From positions 21,352,651-21,416,650 of the forward strand of contig OX387603.1 in NCBI GenBank assembly GCA_947568835.1: DNA of 64,000 nt, read 5' to 3'. This DNA is from Protonemura montana (Eukaryota; Arthropoda; Insecta; Plecoptera; Nemouridae). The translations under genes and the position numbers were made by a program. Below the pieces are notes generated by a model. That model did no database searches and was not told where the DNA came from. It saw only the letters and a list, made by a program, of their open reading frames with translations. Position 1 is the stretch's first letter. Every line of letters begins with the position of its first letter. Below are positions 3,698 through 62,978 of the stretch, piece by piece.

Positions 3698-3722
3698 CAC
3701 GACGTCGACGACGACGACGTCG
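3698..3722 (+). repeat. GAC/GTC repeat with palindromic ends
   Basis: CACGACGTCGACGACGACGACGTC is a short GAC tract bracketed by ACGTCG/CGACGT palindromes. Confidence 0.7.
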
Positions 3723-6700
3723 CTTTACCCGTTCGCAGCCGTTTTGCATTCCGAAATGATAAAGGAAGCATGTTGCGTGGACATATAAATCTAGCTATGT
3801 GTATGTGTGGGAAACAGAAAGCTAAAGCCACGTCAGCTACGTCCCTGAATCCACGTCCATGGAAACAACCCGAGCACATAGCAGCATGCCACACATCAAA
3901 CAGAAAATGTGTGCTGTGTAACTAAATATGACCTGCACTCTACGCTGCGGAAAGTAGCGAGTGTTTGTCTGACTATTGCAAAGTTCTAGCGGTGTTAGTG
4001 GCACTACCACGTTCTGTACAAAATGCGAACAATGACTGCGAACAATGTAGTTGACAACGTACATTGCAGTTTGTACAATGGAGAGACACCGAGCTGTCTT
4101 ATGTTGTATAATTGTCTGTGCTTTTCTGCAGTTTGAATATATATGTGTTCACTGAGACTAGGTGCTAACGAACTCAAAGGCAAAATGAATATCATTGTTT
4201 AAGAAGAGACTGCGTTAAATTGTTTACAGCGTATTAAAATCCACTCTCTCGGCGCAGGAAATATCTCCATCAGTTTCAAGCATAAAAGGCGTGTAGCCGA
4301 ATGTAAGTATACTAGATTTTTGTGTACCGCTTCAGCAGAATGCAGATGGTGTGTTAGGACTGTTCCACTTCTTGAAAACAGCCACTTAGGAATGTAAAGC
4401 GTTCCATTTTCTTCTCGAAGTTGGAGTTACAAAAACGACACGACGTTTCATATGCACTTCGAACGTAATCGCTCCTACAGGCAACCCGCTATTATTTTTA
4501 TACAATGTGTGTTAAGTCGAATCGTTTGCTAGAATTGTCACAATTGTTAACATGCACTGTGCATGTGACGTTTATGCAGCCACCCATTGTGTGGACTTAG
4601 ATACATCCATCGGCAAGATCTCATTTCATCTGCAAAGAACATTGGGACATGTTCATTTCAAGTCATATTTGAGAGTCCGGTCTTGTTGTGTAGCCAGATG
4701 GTTACGCCCGAAAGGCAGCGTTTAAATTTGTCTGGTTATGGTTTGTTTTAGATTCGACATGATAAACTTGAAGCAACGTTCGAGATTTAGTGGTGGGATA
4801 AAATTGTTCATGTGACAGCAGAGCGTTGATATGAAGCGTTATCAAAATTGCCTTCAAATGGGACGCAAGAAAAGCATATTATACTATGCAATTCAGAGTT
4901 TCCAAGTGGGTATCAGGAAAAAACCAGCACGAATTTGCGTGCAAGCAAAGCTGTCAAAGGAAATTTTCTTTGTTTGACGTGAGTGCAACGGGGGGAAAAC
5001 CGACGAAAGAATTCTTTGTATGCAGAAACATAAAATGAGAAAATTATTTTGTGACAAATGATTGAGTAATGAATGCAATACGGTTGCATGCATATACGAT
5101 CGGTCATTAGAAACAAACAACATACAATTATCTGATAAAATAGGTTACTGTACATATTTTTGCTATGTCGACATATTCTCGTCGATTTACTGTATCGTGA
5201 GACATGATATGCCGTATGTTGTTTTAGAAATTACTTCTCTGGAAATGAAATCGTTGGTAATTGTTTTAAATTTTATTTGTAAATTGTCATTGAATCCACA
5301 TATATGTGAATCATGCTTGCCGTTCTTTCCAGTGCGTCCCACTTTCCTAACAGGAAGCAAAATGTGAGTAACCGGAAAATGTCCGTAACGTGTCATGTGG
5401 AGTTCCAGAAAATGTAGCAAGTAATCACATGTGGGCGTAATTAACATTTTCGAAGGTGTATCCGTCATACAACACGAAATGACTCTATGCCCCTGAACGC
5501 AATCCGCAGATCAAATGTCAAGCGAACTAGACCGGGCACCTCCACTTTTCCAACAAATTTGAAAATTACAAAAAATGTTTGTGAATTTTTGCCCTTCAAC
5601 AATATCCAAACAAATATCAACCCCTATTGGTTCTTTCTTCGAAGCAGGTGTGTTAAAGTTACTTTCAATCCCAAGCGATATTAAAGCAGTGCCCCTAGAT
5701 GCAGCCCGCAGAGCAATTCTGGTATGGGTTCTCCACCAACAAAAACATACTGTTTCTGAATTTTAGGATCCTAGAAAACAGAAAAAATAGTATTGTAGGA
5801 CTCAAATAATGAAGGTCTGTGTAGAGCATGCGTTCCAAATAGGTAAAAAACATTATTTGAAATTGAACTGTATTTATAGTTTCATAATGCAGCCAATATA
5901 TACCTAAATTATGTGGTAGTATCTCAAGCACGGGTTATTTTTTACTTATAAACTGTGAATTACCGGTAAAAGTACATTGTTATTTCTACGACAAAGCTGC
6001 CGACAAAATATGATTTACATGTGACTTGTCAAGAGCGTAATTCTAAGTCTCCCGTGCGCGCTGTTGGTTTTCAAGTAGTTCATCTTGAAGGCAGCAACCC
6101 CATAAAGTCTTCGTCATAACCACTCTGGCTTTAATTTCACAAAGACAAATACACTCAGCCTAGTACAAAGTCTCATCAAACGAAAGTAATTCTTTCTGCA
6201 ATTTTACAGCTCCAAGAGACGGAAGTTACAAAGTTAAAGCTTAAAACCCCATCCCGAAAGCTTTAATACTTTATGAGTAAGTAAGTAGACAAGACCTGAG
6301 AGGATAAAAGTTAAAACAAACACTGATTCATTTTTTACAGAATTAGAATACAGTCGTGTACTCGTGTTTTTTTAAAGTTGCGGTATACACGGTATAAGCC
6401 ATCTCATCATATGGTTCTTATAGGAAACGAATGCACTGCGACAAAAATCGTTAATATTAAGTATAGATGGGCGAGAAGAGCAGGCTAGAAAAGTCTGGCA
6501 CAGAAAACGCAAAGACATGCATTTTTTAATCATCCCCAAGGAAAATGCACCCGCATCTCGCTGACAAATGGTGGACGACACACAAAGACAGAAAACCTCT
6601 CCAAACGACAAACTATCTTCGAAGTTGACACCCATTCTTTGTCGCCCATCCTGCCAACACGACGGTGCCAACATCATCCCTTACTTCTTACACAGTTTTC

Positions 6701-35700: not shown

Positions 35701-37170
35701 TAAACAAAAATCTAGAACCAAATTTTTCTTAGCACAAGAGAAAAAAGACGGCGATGCCAGGAAAAGATCGACGAAGCGCAACTTTTTGATGAAAATAATA
35801 ACTCTTTTACATTGTTTTGCTATAAGTATGAAGCATTCAAAATTTATCGGAGCAAATAAAACGTAAGCTCTTTTCTCACGAAAAAGCCATCAAACTTGAT
35901 GTCTGAAAAAATGACGATCCCATAAAAAGAAGTAAAGCAACCAGGTGTTCTCAATAAGAAGCCATATTATTAGGCATCTTCTTAAAGGGAAGTGCCGATA
36001 AGAAGCAGAAACCGTGTCAACCCCTTGCCTGCGGGGCGACATAGATGCGTCCCACACCAACGCTATCTTGACCGAACGCCGTACCGCACGGCGCCAAAAG
36101 TACGGCGCTCAAAGTATGGCACCGCCGCACTGACGTAGCTACCAGCAACCGCCGGCAGGCACCTACTCCGGTATGCAAACCATGTAAGATATCCAAGTCG
36201 GCAAGCATGCCATCCCCCCACACGTAGTATTTCTTACCGTGTATACTACAATCAAACGAAAAAACGTTGTCTTCGCTATCCGCCAGCGAGGGGCATGGGC
36301 TCTAATGCCATATGAAAGAAAGCACTCGAAGGCCTTTCTTGAGGACCCATGAAAGGATAGGTATTTTCTTTTCAAGCCTCCCACTGCACGGTATTTGAGA
36401 AACCGAGAGACACGGGTCGATTTTCTCTCTTCGTCCGACCAGACATTTCTCCCCCCACACCTTTCCACACGCGCCGCACAGGAAGGAAGATCGCGACATC
36501 CTTGTTTATCTTCCAGAGCTTCAGGCATCCCACACAAACACACGCACACACACGGTTATTTCTATACGAGAAAAATACCAAAAATGCCAGATAAGACAAA
36601 TATGTTTCGTGGTATGATTTCTAATTTTGATACGTCTAATATAAAATGTGTGGACGTGATAGTGTTGGCTATGAAGAGATATGATGTATGGCTTGACGGA
36701 GGAGATATTAACTTTGTCGGTGAGGTTGGGGGCGAATGGGTGGCCATACACAGGCTCGCGGCGTAGGTAGGTCTCTAATCTTCCAGTTATGCCCAGGTAT
36801 CCACGCACACGAGGCCACATGCTACACGGTAGAAGCTAGGCAAGACAGATGAGTTGTTAGGAAAATGATCAACCGCCCTTACACGTGGCATCGCGTCCAG
36901 GTTTTGGCGCCACGTCGCTCGCGTTAGGGCATAAATACAAAAAACACGCGACAATTCCGAGTTAAAAATGAAAATTGATGCATCCATTAGAGCAACTTTT
37001 CCCGACCTAGCCATGCATGATAATGCGCTGGGTATGATGGTTCATGCATGAGGTACGCCAGCGAGGGCTTTTTTTTTGACGTTGCAATGTTATGAATGTG
37101 CTCTTGCCGTGCAGTTTTCATTGGGGCGTACTCAATTGTGAATGCAATAACAAAGTTCAAACAATGAAAA

Positions 37171-37429
37171 TGTTATTGTTATCAACACTATAACTGTCTC
37201 AAAAATTGATGCCCAAACACACTAAAATACAACAAATGCATCAAATACACTAAAATCATTTCAAAAAGCCATGTGTCCAAGTAGCTCAATGGGTTAGAGC
37301 AACACCCCCGATAGGTGAAGATCGGGGTTCAAGTCCCCGTTTGAGCATCAATTTTTGAGACGGTTATTGTGTTCATAATAGTAAAATTACCCGCGCATTG
37401 CAAGCGTATGCAATTTAAATAAGATTTCA
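37171..37429 (+). mobile_element. Fold-back element with tRNA-like core, copy 1
   Basis: A 40-base left arm (37171-37210, ending CAAAAATTGAT) is complementary at 34 of 40 positions to a right arm at 37347-37386 (starting ATCAATTTTTG). Between them are a 64-nt spacer, which includes two copies of a short ACACTAAAAT word, and a 73-nt tRNA-shaped core. After the right arm comes a tail of about 43 bp that is shared almost exactly with copy 2 and contains ATTGCA..TGCAAT inverted halves. The shared order of parts in two copies 23 kb apart shows a dispersed element rather than a chance hairpin. It has features of a tRNA-derived SINE (Pol III boxes) and of a MITE (terminal inverted arms). No protein is encoded. 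Clear target-site duplications were not found, so the outer boundaries are approximate. Confidence 0.75.
37275..37347 (+). tRNA. tRNA-like core of the fold-back element, copy 1 (probable tRNA pseudogene)
   Basis: It is exactly 73 nt and parses as 7-nt acceptor strand, TA, a 4-bp D stem (GCTC/GAGC), an anticodon arm, a 4-nt variable loop, a 5-bp T stem (CGGGG/CCCCG), acceptor strand and discriminator A. The A box is TAGCTCAATGG (37282-37292). The B box is GGTTCAAGTCC (37326-37336), a full match to the GGTTCRANYCC consensus. The acceptor stem has one mismatch at position 3, and the anticodon stem pairs at 4 of 5 positions. The anticodon loop is CCCGATA, with C where U33 is expected, so a functional tRNA is unlikely and no amino acid is assigned. 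A T5 run at 37352-37356 would stop RNA polymerase III a few bases after the 3' end. Confidence 0.6.
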
Positions 37430-40400
37430 ACTAAATGAATATGTGCTCTTCATTTGTAAATTACTTGCATGATCTGGGTATTCGCGGGTACACCCACCTC
37501 TATAGCGAAGAAATACTCAGGTAAACCTAAATTTGTATGTTTTCAAAACTAACTGCGACAACCCGTATATTTTACGGTTCCTTGATGTTGCTCAGAATTT
37601 CAACTTCATCATCATAATAAATTCGGACTACTTCAATGCAACCACGATTAAACCGCAAAAATTAATAATGGGTTCTACAAAGATTTCAGAGCTCATAATA
37701 AACTAGGGAGTATAGACGCACACAATTCAACGACATGAAAAGCAACGATATTTAAAAAATCCCCTCCTACTACACCTAGGTGGGTGGAACATCACCGCAC
37801 ACCCAACTCTTTTTGCAACATTACACCAGTGCTTTGGTAACCATAAAAAAATCTAAGCATCCGCAATTAATATTTTAAATCCTAGCTTTCTTTCATTACC
37901 GGCTCTGGAAGCAATTTCACCTTATAACAACCAAATGCAAGTAAAAATAAGACGTCCCACTGCGAAACATAAGCCCAAGCACAAATCCTTTCGCTACTAA
38001 TGGATAATGGATGAAAGAAGTACTGGTGCGGAAGTTCCTTGGTTCGGATTATAGCGTCTATACACTGCAGATCCCCGACTCGCATTTCGAAGGCAATGTT
38101 ATATCCTGCCTGGTACATAAGTCCATGAGGGTAGACATGAGGCGAGGCAAGCAAAGGCTGCAAGGCTAAGGGGATGGGTGGATGTATGGAAATGAGCTGC
38201 CATATTCTGACTGACAGCCGAGCCAAAGGCCCCCCATAGAATACAAAAGGGCCCGGCCTCGCGACAACGGTTCAAGGGGCTTATGTTGAACGAAGCCAGC
38301 ACGTCCGATCTCCCATGTGAACAAGTGGTACGACATTATCCACCCAGTTCCGTTGGACTGTTCGGCTGCAAACTGGGCGGGGGATGAACTACCTATGTCA
38401 ACTGGCAAGATGAATTCTATTGCATCAACTGCGTGGGCCATTATTAAAAAATGAATTAATAATATCTTCACAGAGGTATGTATACTCACATGGAATATTA
38501 ATCTAGAAAGGTGTGCGTTGGCTAAAAACAAGGGGTTGGAGATTCATTTGAGCGTCCTGTGGTGCACCTTGGTGATAGTTAATTGTGTGCTGGAGGGAAA
38601 CTTCCCGTCTGCGGTGGCTTTTATGTCAGCTGCAGGCGAAAACATTGTGAAGGGGAAGCAAAATATTAGCTATACAAGGATTTTTAGTATAATGCCATTT
38701 ATATCAATTTGTGTAGTGAAACAATATTCCGCGGTAGAATGCGAAGAGATTATCTAGTCGTTCTGCTCTATAAAAGACTGCACAATTGTTAGAAATAGAT
38801 TTTTACAACCCTGCGGGAGGGTTGTCTTTTAAAATAAGAAACAAGTTCGCAATGTTACATCATAAATTTCAGCATCTAACATAAATCAAATGGAATGAGA
38901 ATTATGGCAGTAGGGTACTCGATAAATAAATAAAATTGTCATTTATAATCATGAATGTTACTTTTGCGTATTCCACCGTCGAAGCTTTTGAGCTTAGCTA
39001 CCTTAGAAAACCAATGTAAATACGTGATAGAAAGATACCCGTAACATTTTTAAAATTTAATACGATTTTTGCGATGAATACTAAATGGATGTAAAATTAT
39101 ATCTTTCTGAGAGGAAAATGCAATTTCTATCCTGTATGTGGCAAACACCAGCCTGTGTGAATCCAGCCAAGACTTGCACGTCGCTGCACGTAGAAAATGC
39201 ACGATGGTGAATATCGTATATCGAGGCAAATTCGATCAGCATGCAGGATTATTAAATGTGCTTCCTTGTAGCGCCGAAAGAGGAAAGTATCGGCAGGATC
39301 AGACAGGATCAGTCAGGAGCACTGTGCACAGAGCTTCGACACTCCCCCTTTGATGTGGAAAGCGCGAAATCTCGGCGATATTACTCTGTGCTATGGGTGA
39401 AAACAAATTGAATGAAAAGTGTTTGGGAGGGAATCAATTGTATCAGCCGCGTGTCAAGAAGTTTCGGAACGTACGAGAGAGAGATATGACGCAACAGTTT
39501 TAAAACGTATCGAGTCGCACGATGGAAAAAAGTTTTGGTGTACGTATTTTCCCCTTTTATCTACTATATTTCTGTGTATTGGAATATGTTGAACAAAAAA
39601 GCACTCTACCACTTTCAAACGTAATATTAGAAAATTGTGAAATTATAATTTTTTTAACCGCTGTCAAAACCACGGTACAAAAAGTTTTTGTTTCATCGCT
39701 GTATGTGGTTTAACAGAGAGCTCTGGTGGTTCGCAGAATGTCAGGTTTTAGTGAAATAATGGCCATTGAATTCTGTAGATAGCTATGATGCCAATTACGA
39801 TTAATACATTGTAAAATGCACACTCGGACATGCATGGCGGAATTCCTATCACCCGACATTATACGTTCGCAATTACTCACTCTTGGCCGCATCCTAAAAT
39901 TGGTCGCCCTATAGTACAATTTGTGAACAAAATCAGTGCCCAACATTGAGGATTCAATACTCATAGCTCGTGAGTCATGACAAATAAGCCCACCCTTATC
40001 TTCTACGTGCCAAGGTGATTCCACCCCCTCAAAAAGGTTCGCAGAGCCATAAAGATATAAAAAAATCCAATAAAATGTTCTGCGTATAAAATACATTTCG
40101 GTGTTCGTTCCCTTAAAATTTGTGTGCGACTATAGCCACTAAGGGGCAAGTAATCCTATTGGGTGTTATAAGATATATTTTTGATAAAATATTCATATAT
40201 ATTCCAGTGTCTTCGGTAGTTCTCGTCCCATCTCTTCTACACCACTGCTGAGCTATAACCACGCAGTAGCACGAAGTCTATTTGCATGCATATTGCCAGG
40301 ACATGTCGGCTCTTCTTTTGTACCCACTTTTGTTTGACTAGACTCGGTACAGACTTCGTATATATATATATCCCGACGCATTCAATGAAACGAAACTTTC

Positions 40401-59411: not shown

Positions 59412-60625
59412 TCCCTCCCTCGCGACCAGCGATAACTTCTAGTGACCTATTTTCTTTCAGGAACATCAGAAAAGAAAAGCGAAGAACAGCGCGAGGAAAA
59501 CAGCGCGTGCAAAAAAAACGACGCCAAATTCGATCTACGCCCTTCGCGAGCGAGCACCCCGCGGTGAGAACTGTGAACATTAACTTCAAATCCGAGGTGA
59601 GACCACGTTCACGAGAGCGTGCACGCTATGGCATAAGTGCATTTTAGTGCGCGCGTCATAATTTCAGAAGCGACTTAGCAAATTGCACTCGAGGTTGCAT
59701 AAAATCTTAGTCAAAGTACACCGCACGGATGATAATTATGCATAAACATAAAACAGCTGGCTGTGGTTTTACAGCAGTGCCGATAGCTCTTGTAATTAGT
59801 GCGCATTACGATTCCAAGTTTCGAAGTATGAATCCGGTTTTATTGAGACAAGTTTGTGGCGCGCTAATTTCGCTCGCGAGGGAAAGGATCATTTCCACGT
59901 TGCATATAAATTCACCATACGAAAACCGCTGTGCACATTCTCATGACTTTTAGAGACAAAATACCGAAAACTCAGCCGCAAGAAAACGCTAAAAACGGAG
60001 AAATTAAAATTGCGCGACCCTAAAATTTATGAAAAGCACCTGCATATTGCAAAGGCAATCTCGATTTCCGACGCTGAAATTTACAGAAACTGTAAATCAC
60101 GGTCTAGCTATGTGGCCAAAATGACTTTTCGCACGTTGCAGCGAATGAACCGCGACCACTTTTCTTAATATAAATAAAGTTTCCCGAGCAATTACCTCGG
60201 AAATAGCTTCGCATGCACCCGCGCGTGCGCCTCTTTTAGCTTTACGTCCCTCGGTTCATCTCGGCGGCGGCGCAAGACTGATGTGTTTCGCTCTCATAAC
60301 TTGTCATTATCATTAATTCATTTGTTCGCCGCGGCAGAAGCGCTTTGGGAATACGCCTGTGGCCAGGAGGCAGGAAAGACATGCCAGACATTGTCCTGGT
60401 AGTGTTTTAACCCAAGGGGTGTGCGACGCCTATGGGTCTTCTCTTGTACCCGTCAGCCTAACTTTACAAAACCTTGAGATCGGTTTCATAGTCTGCAAAC
60501 GTAAGACTTCAAAAGAAATTTATTTGGAGATGGTTTTTTTACAATTGGCTGTTGTAATATATCATTGCAAAGTTACCACTGGACTGATTAGGGTTGTAAA
60601 AGTAATAAGATATATATATATTTTT

Positions 60626-60848
60626 TTTTATTATTATCAACACTATAACCGTCTCAAAAATTGATTACACTAAAATCGTCCCATAAATCCAGTGTCCAAG
60701 TAGCTCAATGGCTTAGAGCAACACCCGCGATGAGTGGAGATCGGGGTTCGTGTCCCCGTTTAGGCATCAATTTTTGAGACGGTTATAGTGTTGATAATAA
60801 TAAAATACCCCGCGCATTGCAAGCGTTTGCAATTTAAATAAGATTTCA
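60626..60848 (+). mobile_element. Fold-back element with tRNA-like core, copy 2 (perfect 40-bp arms)
   Basis: The left arm 60626-60665 and right arm 60766-60805 are perfect reverse complements over 40 bases (core words ATCAACACTATAACCGTCTC and its complement). The tRNA-shaped core occupies 60694-60766, so its last base is the first base of the right arm. The spacer between left arm and core is 28 nt, shorter than in copy 1, which carries a partial duplication there. The tail (ACCCCGCGCATTGCAAGCGT onward, to 60848) matches copy 1 with about one substitution over 40 bases. The upstream side abuts an AT repeat and T run, so the left limit could be a few bases off. It is non-coding. Confidence 0.78.
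60694..60766 (+). tRNA. tRNA-like core of the fold-back element, copy 2 (probable tRNA pseudogene)
   Basis: It has the same 73-nt layout as copy 1: D stem GCTC/GAGC and T stem CGGGG/CCCCG are intact, the A box is TAGCTCAATGG (60701-60711) and the B box GGTTCGTGTCC (60745-60755) has one mismatch to consensus. The acceptor stem is paired at position 3, where copy 1 is not, but is mismatched at position 4, where copy 1 pairs; a consensus of the two copies would pair throughout. The anticodon arm is poor (3 of 5 pairs, loop CGCGATG, no U33). A T5 run follows at 60771-60775. Confidence 0.55.
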
Positions 60849-62978
60849 TCCTAATATTATTTTTTCTTTCTGGTTCAAAAGTACGGCAATGTGTGTTAGC
60901 CAAACCTTACGTTCTTATCGTGGTGGATTGGTATCAACAATCACAAGCGAATAGCTCCTGTGCTGGTTGTAGAGGTTGTTTGATTCTGCCGAATACAAGT
61001 GAAATGTGAAGTAAAACGCGATTGTTGCCAAGTCAGTTCTCTGATAGTCGGAATCCCACGTGTTGGGGCAGTGATGGGAATGTTGTGGTATTGGGGATGA
61101 ACTCTACCGCTTTTGCCAATGTGCTGTCGACATTCTATTCCGATTCTGCCAGGTAATAGTGACGAGCAGACAAGCCTCAATCGATAAATAACTCGCGCAA
61201 ACCGCAGCCAATCTTGTTGGTTACAACATGAATTGCTGGCCAATAAAGCCGACACAATTTATTGTGGATTTATCTCGAAACGACTGCTATTATAACCGAC
61301 GTGAGGGGTGAAATGTTTATGGTACAAATTGTTTGATTTATAAATAAAAAACAAAAACGCAGGAAAACTCTGTACAAAATTTGTGTACATGTTTTTCCGC
61401 AGTATTAAACATGCCATCCAATAGCTGGCGTTCCTATCCAAAGTATACATGTCAAAACTTTTGCTTCGAAACTGTGTTTTGTTTAACTGCCGAGTTCGAA
61501 AATTGTTTAAAAATAAAGAATAAAACTTTTTTTATAAATATTTTTATTTGAGATGGAAAAAAAATGTTAAACTCACTGACAAAAGTTCACCATACAAGTG
61601 CTGCGGATGGCTTTTAGGGATGGAGAAGGGGAACAGTCTGCCGTTCGACCCTTTGCGACACGGTTTTCTGACTATATCCACTTCTCGTTGCTACAGAAGT
61701 TAATTAAATTGCCTTAATCGAACGCGTATACATCTAGGTCCCTCTAACAATTAACTTTTGCCCCATGATGCCAGTGTGGTGAAAATTTCCTCGACCACCC
61801 CACCAGAAATAGGTTATAGATACGGTTTCTCGATAAGGGATTGAAGTCGATTTTCAAACTTTTCCCTGTCCCCTCGTGCATCACGACGTTTACCTTTATA
61901 TACACGTTACATAATAGCAGGTATAATTTCATGGTGAGCTAACGTTCATTTGATTAGTCATTTCGGCGAACCATGCCTAGCATCGCAGACGTCTCCTGAG
62001 TGTTCATGTTTCTAATAACAATGCTGGTATACCACAAGGGAACGTCAGTGGTCCGTTGGATTAAATGCCATCCCCGCGTGTGCCCACGTAACAAGATCTG
62101 CCACGCAATTTTCATCTCAAGTGAAACACAGAGATATATAGATTGAGGGTGAACTCTTATGGTGGAGCGGCGAATCAGATGGCGCTCCTTCAATTATGGG
62201 ACATTGTGTGAATTTGACCCGAGGAATTATGTTGCGAAAACGAAGTGTTGTATTTCATTGATGAAATATTCTGTGGAGCGACAAGTAGTTTGAGAATGAT
62301 GTAACGCCAGTTGAAGTAACTAATCAAATAAATCAGTGAGGCAATTAAATCGTATTCTACGACAGAGGACGCGTCTTGCAAAACGACTCGGGATGACGCC
62401 TGCATCATGCAAAGAAAGCTGAAAACATTGCGAAAAATGAAAATAATAAAACGATTCGTCAAGTGATGGTCACTGAACATCTATCCCTCAAATATTTAGG
62501 TGATTTTTTTTTCTGGTTGTTATTGAAAGATGACAAGCTAGTTCGTATTTTGACTATAAATTTAGGTAAAGCAACATCAAGTAACAAACATCTCAGAAAT
62601 GATAAACAGCATTGATTACAAAATATGTTTAAGTTTGTTTCCAGGTCTGAATCAGCCGCTTGACTTACGGTTAGGTCGAATTAGCTCATGGTTACTCACG
62701 CGATTCATTGCTACAAGATTTTGTTTGTTCAAGAAATTTACCCTGTGACATATTTTCCCTTTTCAATTCCAACCTCTCATAACACGTCCCCAGACATTTT
62801 GGTCGAGCGCGCCTCCTTTGAGCCCATTAGCGCAAAGTGACGTGCATGATAACCGATTTATACCAACAAGTCGATTCGCTTTGAGACTACGCGTGGCCCC
62901 CAGGCCAAATGCTTGATTCCGCTGTTCATGTGGAAACACCGCGTAAATGCCGAGCAATAACGGAAGTTGACGAATTAC
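60849..62978 (-). other. 39-kb phase-0 intron, donor-proximal 2.1 kb: nothing identified
   Basis: This is unique-looking AT-leaning sequence between the second fold-back element and the donor AAG/gtaatt at 62978. Minus-strand frames at 60941-61255 and 62190-62480 are open but show no domain, signal or splice context that I can support. Confidence 0.8.

What the first reader, a model, noticed from the sequence alone, without database searches (positions are those of the whole stretch)
60626..60848. Hairpin element that presents a tRNA-shaped Pol III unit between perfect 40-bp inverted arms
Two copies 23 kb apart share the same layout: inverted arm, spacer, 73-nt tRNA-shaped core, opposite arm and common tail. 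tRNA-derived SINEs normally lack inverted arms, and MITEs normally lack Pol III promoters, so this combines two classes. As a single-stranded foldback it would be a 40-bp stem with a cloverleaf in its loop.
Basis: partly seen in the sequence, partly recalled or inferred. Interest (0 to 1): 0.72.

Follow-up and report, generated by a model that had tools for sequence, protein, structure and literature searches.

The report
tRNA-headed SINE with Penelope-type insertion ends
The hairpin is one copy of a very abundant tRNA-headed short repeat whose inverted arms look like a by-product of how it is inserted, and the pattern of its ends matches the unusual insertion style of Penelope-like retroelements rather than that of ordinary SINEs or MITEs.

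Summary
The 40-bp perfect arms (60626-60665 / 60766-60805) around a tRNA-shaped core are real. The copy belongs to a tRNA-headed family with 18,416 head matches in a 258-Mb genome. It is not a fixed-TIR element.

Of 85 non-redundant copies chosen only by an exact tRNA head, 52 carry an inverted copy of the element's own 3' region at the 5' end. The arm's outer end lies at one of two fixed sites: A (AATAATAAAA), or B about 45 nt further. The opposite end of the copy then uses the other site: A/B 22, B/A 21, A/A 1, B/B 1, 7 unscorable (p = 1e-10). Target duplications flank 27 of 52 armed copies but 2 of 33 unarmed ones.

A tail on only one of two inverted ends, plus partial direct copies, is the reported Penelope-like element (PLE) signature. 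A PLE with an open frame in this genome shows the same end anatomy.

Best reading: a tRNA-headed non-autonomous element inserted by PLE-type machinery. Both nicked target strands prime at the two RNA sites, and the shorter cDNA often stalls in the tRNA-like fold. No sequence match to a PLE was found, so the partner is inferred. New variant of a known kind.

The parts
60618..60629 (+). candidate left target-site duplication (ATATTTTTTTTT), overlapping the arm start
   Evidence: 11 of 12 match to the right copy; low complexity
60626..60665 (-). 5' inverted arm, outer end at site A, no tail
   Evidence: 100% rc of 60766-60805
60666..60693 (+). spacer; diverged form of the native 5' stem strand
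   Evidence: read by eye against reference unit R
60694..60766 (+). tRNA-shaped core with A box; B box does not match the consensus
   Evidence: its homologue in the 37-kb copy is an Rfam tRNA hit
60766..60805 (+). 3' arm ending at site A; TTTTT just after the core
60806..60853 (+). tail up to site B
   Evidence: corresponds to R282-331; site B ends cluster at R321-331 in the sample
60854..60865 (+). candidate right target-site duplication (ATATTATTTTTT)
37163..37173 (+). second copy: left TSD AATGAAAATGT
   Evidence: 10 of 11 match
37169..37218 (-). second copy: 5' inverted arm, reaching into the tRNA 3' end
   Evidence: 50 nt, 86% complementary
37274..37349 (+). second copy: tRNA-shaped core, A and B boxes match
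   Evidence: ARAGORN, Rfam RF00005 47.8 bits; boxes
37339..37388 (+). second copy: 3' arm
37389..37433 (+). second copy: tail to site B
37434..37444 (+). second copy: right TSD AATGAATATGT

Best explanation
A tRNA-headed non-autonomous retroelement (unit of about 331 nt: upstream domain of 170 nt, tRNA-like head, 3' arm, tail) is inserted by Penelope-type machinery. Both strands of an A/T-edged target are cut roughly 8-20 bp apart, and both 3' ends are extended on element RNA, one from site A and one from site B about 45 nt further 3'. One cDNA runs on through the tRNA and often into a preceding unit; the other is short and often stops in or at the tRNA-like fold. Joining the two gives an inverted arm, and filling the stagger gives the TSD outside it. 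Shown: arms, two fixed sites, A/B alternation, the link with TSDs, units joined head to tail, and the same end anatomy in a PLE of this genome. Inferred: that PLE proteins do it, that both cDNAs come from one RNA, and that the tRNA fold is the block.
For:: 52 of 85 copies with an inverted left end; A/B 22, B/A 21, A/A 1, B/B 1, Fisher p 1.3e-10, 7 armed copies unscorable; 12 of 12 settings of E-value and chaining give p <= 1e-5. TSD score >=9: 27 of 52 armed (flank-swap control 1.5%) vs 2 of 33 unarmed (control 3.2%), p 6.6e-6; 24 of the 27 lie within about 9 nt of both ends. Of 27 TSDs with score >=8 in A/B or B/A copies, turned A-left/B-right, 19 start with A and 19 end with T. Inner arm ends: 18 of 52 in R222-243, p 3e-9 against a uniform spread. 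Direct 3' segment before the unit start: 28 of 85. PLE L144: open 856-aa frame with RVT_1 (E 2.8e-13), 12-bp TSD ATGAACCTATTT, inverted end without tail, other end with about 48 nt of tail (read by eye). Papers: tail on one of the inverted pLTRs, TSD outside (PMC3846280, passages); two adjacent RT start sites bounding the tail, both strands cut and extended, ATT preference (PMC11167929, parts 1-2 of 4).
Against: No sequence similarity between R and PLE L144 or the stretches read near five other PLE RT hits, one of them of the L144 family. The unit has no hammerhead core. 33 of 85 copies show no arm and mostly no TSD. Two A/A or B/B exceptions. The 5' ends of direct cDNA as a whole are not clearly enriched in the tRNA (10 of 85, p 0.055). 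Only two PLE copies were seen at an end, so the A/B rule was not counted in PLEs here. Organism unnamed; no RNA data.
Confidence: 0.7

Rival explanations
1. Ordinary LINE-mobilised tRNA SINE with frequent L1-style twin priming: the first nick primes at the RNA 3' end, the second anneals anywhere inside by microhomology.
For: TSDs of LINE-like length; many RT frames of LINE type in the genome; inverted 5' segments are the hallmark of twin priming (recalled).
Against: Outer ends fall at two fixed sites, and the sense 3' end is at A about as often as at B; the inverted segment overlaps the sense copy; unarmed copies lack TSDs (2 of 33); 20 stretches of 3.2 kb after LINE RT domains showed no LINE end with the SINE tail, though 3 of them hold a nearby SINE copy.
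Confidence: 0.17
2. A stable foldback subfamily: the armed element itself is transcribed and copied as such (MITE-like or hairpin RNA master).
For: Several compact copies share a similar layout (W60, L002, L003, L006). The sequence just 5' of the tRNA (R142-162) is itself about 90% rc of R246-266, so one old inversion seems to have become part of the family.
Against: Arm length, inner end and joined partner vary from copy to copy; A/B and B/A occur equally often; TSD length is not fixed (8-20).
Confidence: 0.07
3. cDNA snap-back: the first cDNA folds on the native stem and primes its own second strand.
For: The native stem around the tRNA (z -6.8) could serve as the fold; in L132 and L136 the arm joins at R142-162/R246-266.
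Against: Self-copying would put the same site at both ends (A/A or B/B): 2 of 45 scorable copies.
Confidence: 0.06

Closest known systems
Penelope-like elements (Penelope/Poseidon type)
   Same: Direct partial copy, inverted terminal copy, TSD outside, short tail on only one inverted end, A/T-rich target (papers; here).
   Different: Encodes no protein, has a tRNA-like head instead of an ORF, no hammerhead core, far more copies (18,416 head matches against 80 PLE RT matches).
Metazoan retrozymes (type I hammerhead)
   Same: Small non-autonomous units of about 170-400 nt that occur as repeats; said possibly to rely on PLEs and to be a new type of SINE (PMC8969392, passage); coexist with PLEs (PMC7229834, passages).
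   Different: No hammerhead here; a tRNA-like fold instead; inverted arms with a two-site rule are not described in the passages seen.
tRNA-derived SINEs mobilised by LINEs
   Same: tRNA-related head with A and B boxes, short, abundant, TSDs in armed copies.
   Different: Head lies 170 nt inside the unit, T-run right after it, two 3' ends, inverted arms in 52 of 85 sampled copies, no LINE tail found in the part searched.
MITEs / foldback DNA transposons
   Same: Looks like terminal inverted repeats in a single copy.
   Different: Arms are copy-specific, TSD length varies, the two ends differ by a tail.

Membership tests
Penelope-like element (insertion signature) | Inverted terminal copy with TSD outside it | tested here: met
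   52 of 85 armed; TSD score >=9 in 27 of 52 vs 1.5% control
Penelope-like element (insertion signature) | Short tail on one of the two inverted ends only | tested here: met
   43 of 45 scorable armed copies; 7 not scorable
Penelope-like element (insertion signature) | Partial head-to-tail copy (pseudo-LTR) | tested here: met
   28 of 85 copies; 26 of the 44 long ones; in L079 the partial copy lies on the other side
Penelope-like element (autonomous) | RT and GIY-YIG ORF | tested here: not met
   the 331-nt unit is too short to encode them; PLE RT frames lie elsewhere in the genome
Penelope-like element | Shared pLTR/tail sequence with an autonomous partner | tested here: inconclusive
   no match to L144 or to short stretches near five other PLE hits; most of the 80 PLE hits were not read
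Metazoan retrozyme | Hammerhead ribozyme | tested here: not met
   core motif absent on both strands of doubled R, present three times in PLE L144
Metazoan retrozyme | Circular RNA intermediate | not testable with these tools
   no RNA data
LINE-mobilised tRNA SINE | A and B boxes | tested here: met
   both match in R and in the 37-kb copy; only the A box in the 60-kb copy
LINE-mobilised tRNA SINE | Promoter about 10-15 nt from the 5' end (PMC8969392, passage) | tested here: not met
   head at R171; 44 of 85 copies reach R<=20
LINE-mobilised tRNA SINE | 3' end shared with a LINE | tested here: inconclusive
   20 stretches after LINE RT domains read, of 150 scored among 1781 candidates; no LINE end with the tail seen
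MITE / TIR transposon | Constant terminal repeats and fixed TSD length | tested here: not met
   TSDs 8-20 nt; arms vary

The most novel reading that the evidence does not exclude
A tRNA-headed SINE family that spreads through Penelope-type machinery, in which each complete insertion uses one RNA primed once at each of two fixed sites by the two nicked target strands, and in which the tRNA-like fold limits one cDNA. Its thousands of copies record the two-site rule of PLE insertion.
Probability: 0.55. Interest if true: 0.75.

Novelty: new variant of a known kind. Interest (0 to 1): 0.64.

Why it matters
How Penelope-like elements insert, why they get inverted ends and why only one end carries a tail are open questions, and autonomous PLE copies are few (80 RT matches here). 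This family supplies thousands of copies and, in the sample, a nearly strict one-A-one-B rule, which argues for coupled priming of both target strands. It would also add PLEs to LINEs as drivers of tRNA-headed SINEs, beyond the hammerhead retrozymes already suspected.

Tried and rejected
Rejected: MITE/TIR transposon (variable arms and TSDs); local duplication of the two window copies (different candidate TSDs; the 60-kb one is weak); L1-style twin priming and snap-back as the main route (A/B table); Pol III from the head as the source of the full RNA (T-run after the head; templates that start upstream of the head, for example L101 R133, L129 R104, L133 R88). The GIY-YIG search gave one match, read as an SLX1-like gene (recalled motif); Pfam also reports no GIY-YIG in L144. 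LINE stretches: 3 of 20 hold a SINE copy; for two of them (L121, L125) other copies of the same LINE lack it, and the third (L109) lies about 1.4 kb past the RT frame. The U domain folds well alone (z -3.0), but the alignment of 39 copies gives almost no covariation (term 0.14 kcal/mol, 1 of 28 pairs), so no structured-RNA claim is made. Rfam at a loose threshold gave no ribozyme in the unit. Tail regions of SINE and PLE show no special fold (z 0.6 and -0.5).

Paper searches that showed no tRNA-headed PLE-dependent element in their listings: (open-licence PMC only). Papers opened: PMC11167929 (parts 1-2 of 4, that is abstract, main text and the first methods), and passages of PMC3846280, PMC7229834 and PMC8969392. 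The 2021 PLE survey by Craig et al. was not held and was not read; it could hold a precedent.

Full report
Observation. The fold is far from chance (z -10.2). The window lies in a genome of 258.48 Mb, which I take to be an animal's from one EGF-like reading beside L024 (by eye, recalled motif); the species is not known.

Family size. The head word occurs 18,416 times with up to 3 mismatches, against 0 for the reversed control. Some of these are tandem repeats of a 52-nt piece of the head (7 of 85 sampled copies have two or more head words close together). A word of the upstream domain occurs 2,513 times with up to 2 mismatches.

Sampling. One search lists 100 exact head matches, the first of the genome, on C1, C2 and part of C3. 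I read 90 of them (30 loci, 60), without regard to arms. The 10 left out are the two window copies, a close pair and one more on C2, and five in one tandem array on C3. Five duplicates were dropped by eye (L010, L027, L029, L046, L050), leaving 85; no two of these share flanks. Each was compared with a 331-nt reference unit R: upstream domain 1-170, tRNA head 171-240, arm 241-281, tail 282-331. The longest segment of a copy is a median 92.5% identical to R.

Anatomy. 52 of 85 have an inverted segment at the 5' end. Its outer end is at site A (R261-290, 25 copies) or site B (R321-331, 26 copies), with 1 elsewhere. The sense 3' end uses the same two sites. The two ends of a copy alternate: A/B 22, B/A 21, A/A 1, B/B 1; 7 armed copies could not be scored because one end was at neither site. 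Twelve settings of E-value and chaining give the same picture: 31 to 52 armed copies, at most three A/A or B/B, p from 1e-5 to 3e-12. Of the copies fetched by the arm-biased query, L002-L006 were not counted; L002, L003, L005 and L006 are A/B with TSDs of 12-16 bp, and L004 is complex without a clear TSD. L007 is the same place as L025, which is in the sample; L008 was not scored.

Target duplications. With a score of 9 or more, 27 of 52 armed copies have a TSD at their ends against 1.5% in a flank-swap control; unarmed copies have 2 of 33 against 3.2% (difference p 6.6e-6). In 24 of the 27 it lies within about 9 nt of both ends. So the arm lies inside the inserted piece, and the double-ended product is the one that leaves a TSD. 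Among 27 TSDs of score 8 or more in A/B or B/A copies (control at that score 4.9%), turned so that A is left and B right, 19 start with A and 19 end with T.

Stops. Inner arm ends pile up in the 3' part of the tRNA (R222-243): 18 of 52, about 3.5 expected from a uniform spread (p 3e-9). The direct partial copies before the unit start there in 11 of 28 (p 8e-7; starts). The 5' ends of direct cDNA as a whole show only a weak excess (10 of 85, p 0.055). BLAST ends are fuzzy by a few bases, and a uniform spread is a crude null.

More than one unit. 28 of 85 copies, 26 of them among the 44 that reach R<=20, have a direct 3' segment before the unit start. In L079 the order is the other way round. 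22 exact places have head, tail and upstream domain in a row, and several of these begin upstream of the head. So the template is longer than one unit: a multimer, a circle, or a read-through.

The native stem. The stretch just 5' of the tRNA (R142-162) is rc of R246-266 at about 90%, so even the reference unit without an added arm folds the cloverleaf onto a long stem (z -6.8). I read this as the trace of an older inversion that became part of the master unit (inference).

Penelope. Two papers describe this set of features for PLEs: an adjacent inverted pLTR inside the TSD, with a 31-bp tail optionally on one inverted pLTR (PMC3846280, passages); and cleavage and extension of both strands, with reverse transcription starting at two adjacent internal sites that bound the tail and a preference for ATT (PMC11167929). 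A recalled PLE RT-core query finds 80 matches in this genome, all 98 candidates scored. One, L144, has an open 856-aa frame with an RT domain, a GIY-YIG-like end by eye (recalled motif; Pfam does not report it), three hammerhead core motifs, direct and inverted pLTRs, and a 12-bp TSD that starts with A and ends with T. By eye its inverted end has no tail and its other end has about 48 nt of tail. That is the SINE's end anatomy. L145 shows a second inverted end of the same family at the same tail-less position.

What is missing. L144 and the stretches read near five other PLE hits (one of the L144 family) share no sequence with R, so the actual partner is not identified. The A/B rule was not counted in PLE copies. 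The unit has no hammerhead core. There are no RNA data.

The tRNA. A and B boxes fit in R, but a run of four or more T follows the head in 65 of 85 copies, where Pol III would be expected to stop (recalled). I therefore think the head is not simply the promoter of the full RNA. It may mark processing or act as an RT block; this is open.

Verdict. Real, abundant and well explained as an insertion product with a Penelope-type signature. The combination with a tRNA head did not appear in the listings of my nine paper searches (open-licence PMC only).

Noticed in passing
L009, L022, L026, L037, L080; G000:C3:416100-416546: Tandem arrays of a 52-nt piece of the tRNA head inside otherwise normal copies; some arrays lie in duplicated segments.
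   Followed up: partly
window 37274-37349: ARAGORN calls this a tRNA-Ser(CGA) gene, but it is the head of a SINE copy; tRNA gene counts in this genome may be inflated by the family.
   Followed up: yes
G000:C5:58582, C1:33018164, C2:150261, C12:186435, C13:143177, C14:13008538, C15:12836794: PLE reverse transcriptase frames of 310 aa with nearly the same score, close to contig ends; possibly a subtelomeric PLE family (not compared with each other).
   Followed up: no
G000:C16:27400305 and C5:300311 (L147, L148, L150, L151): PLE RT frames preceded by frames that look like LINE-type RT; nested insertions or composite elements.
   Followed up: no
L006, some 150-200 nt after the SINE: A second, different tRNA-like stretch (GTGTGCCCAGGTAGCTCAGTTGGTAGAGC...), possibly another SINE or a tRNA gene.
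   Followed up: no
L144 978-1011 and 3918-3951 (- strand), 4542-4575 (+ strand): Hammerhead core motifs in the PLE pLTRs; Rfam reported none at gathering threshold over L144, nor at the loose one over 3700-4700.
   Followed up: partly
L149: Long tandem repeat of a 15-nt unit (TAGCTTCAGTTGTAG) upstream of a PLE hit.
   Followed up: no
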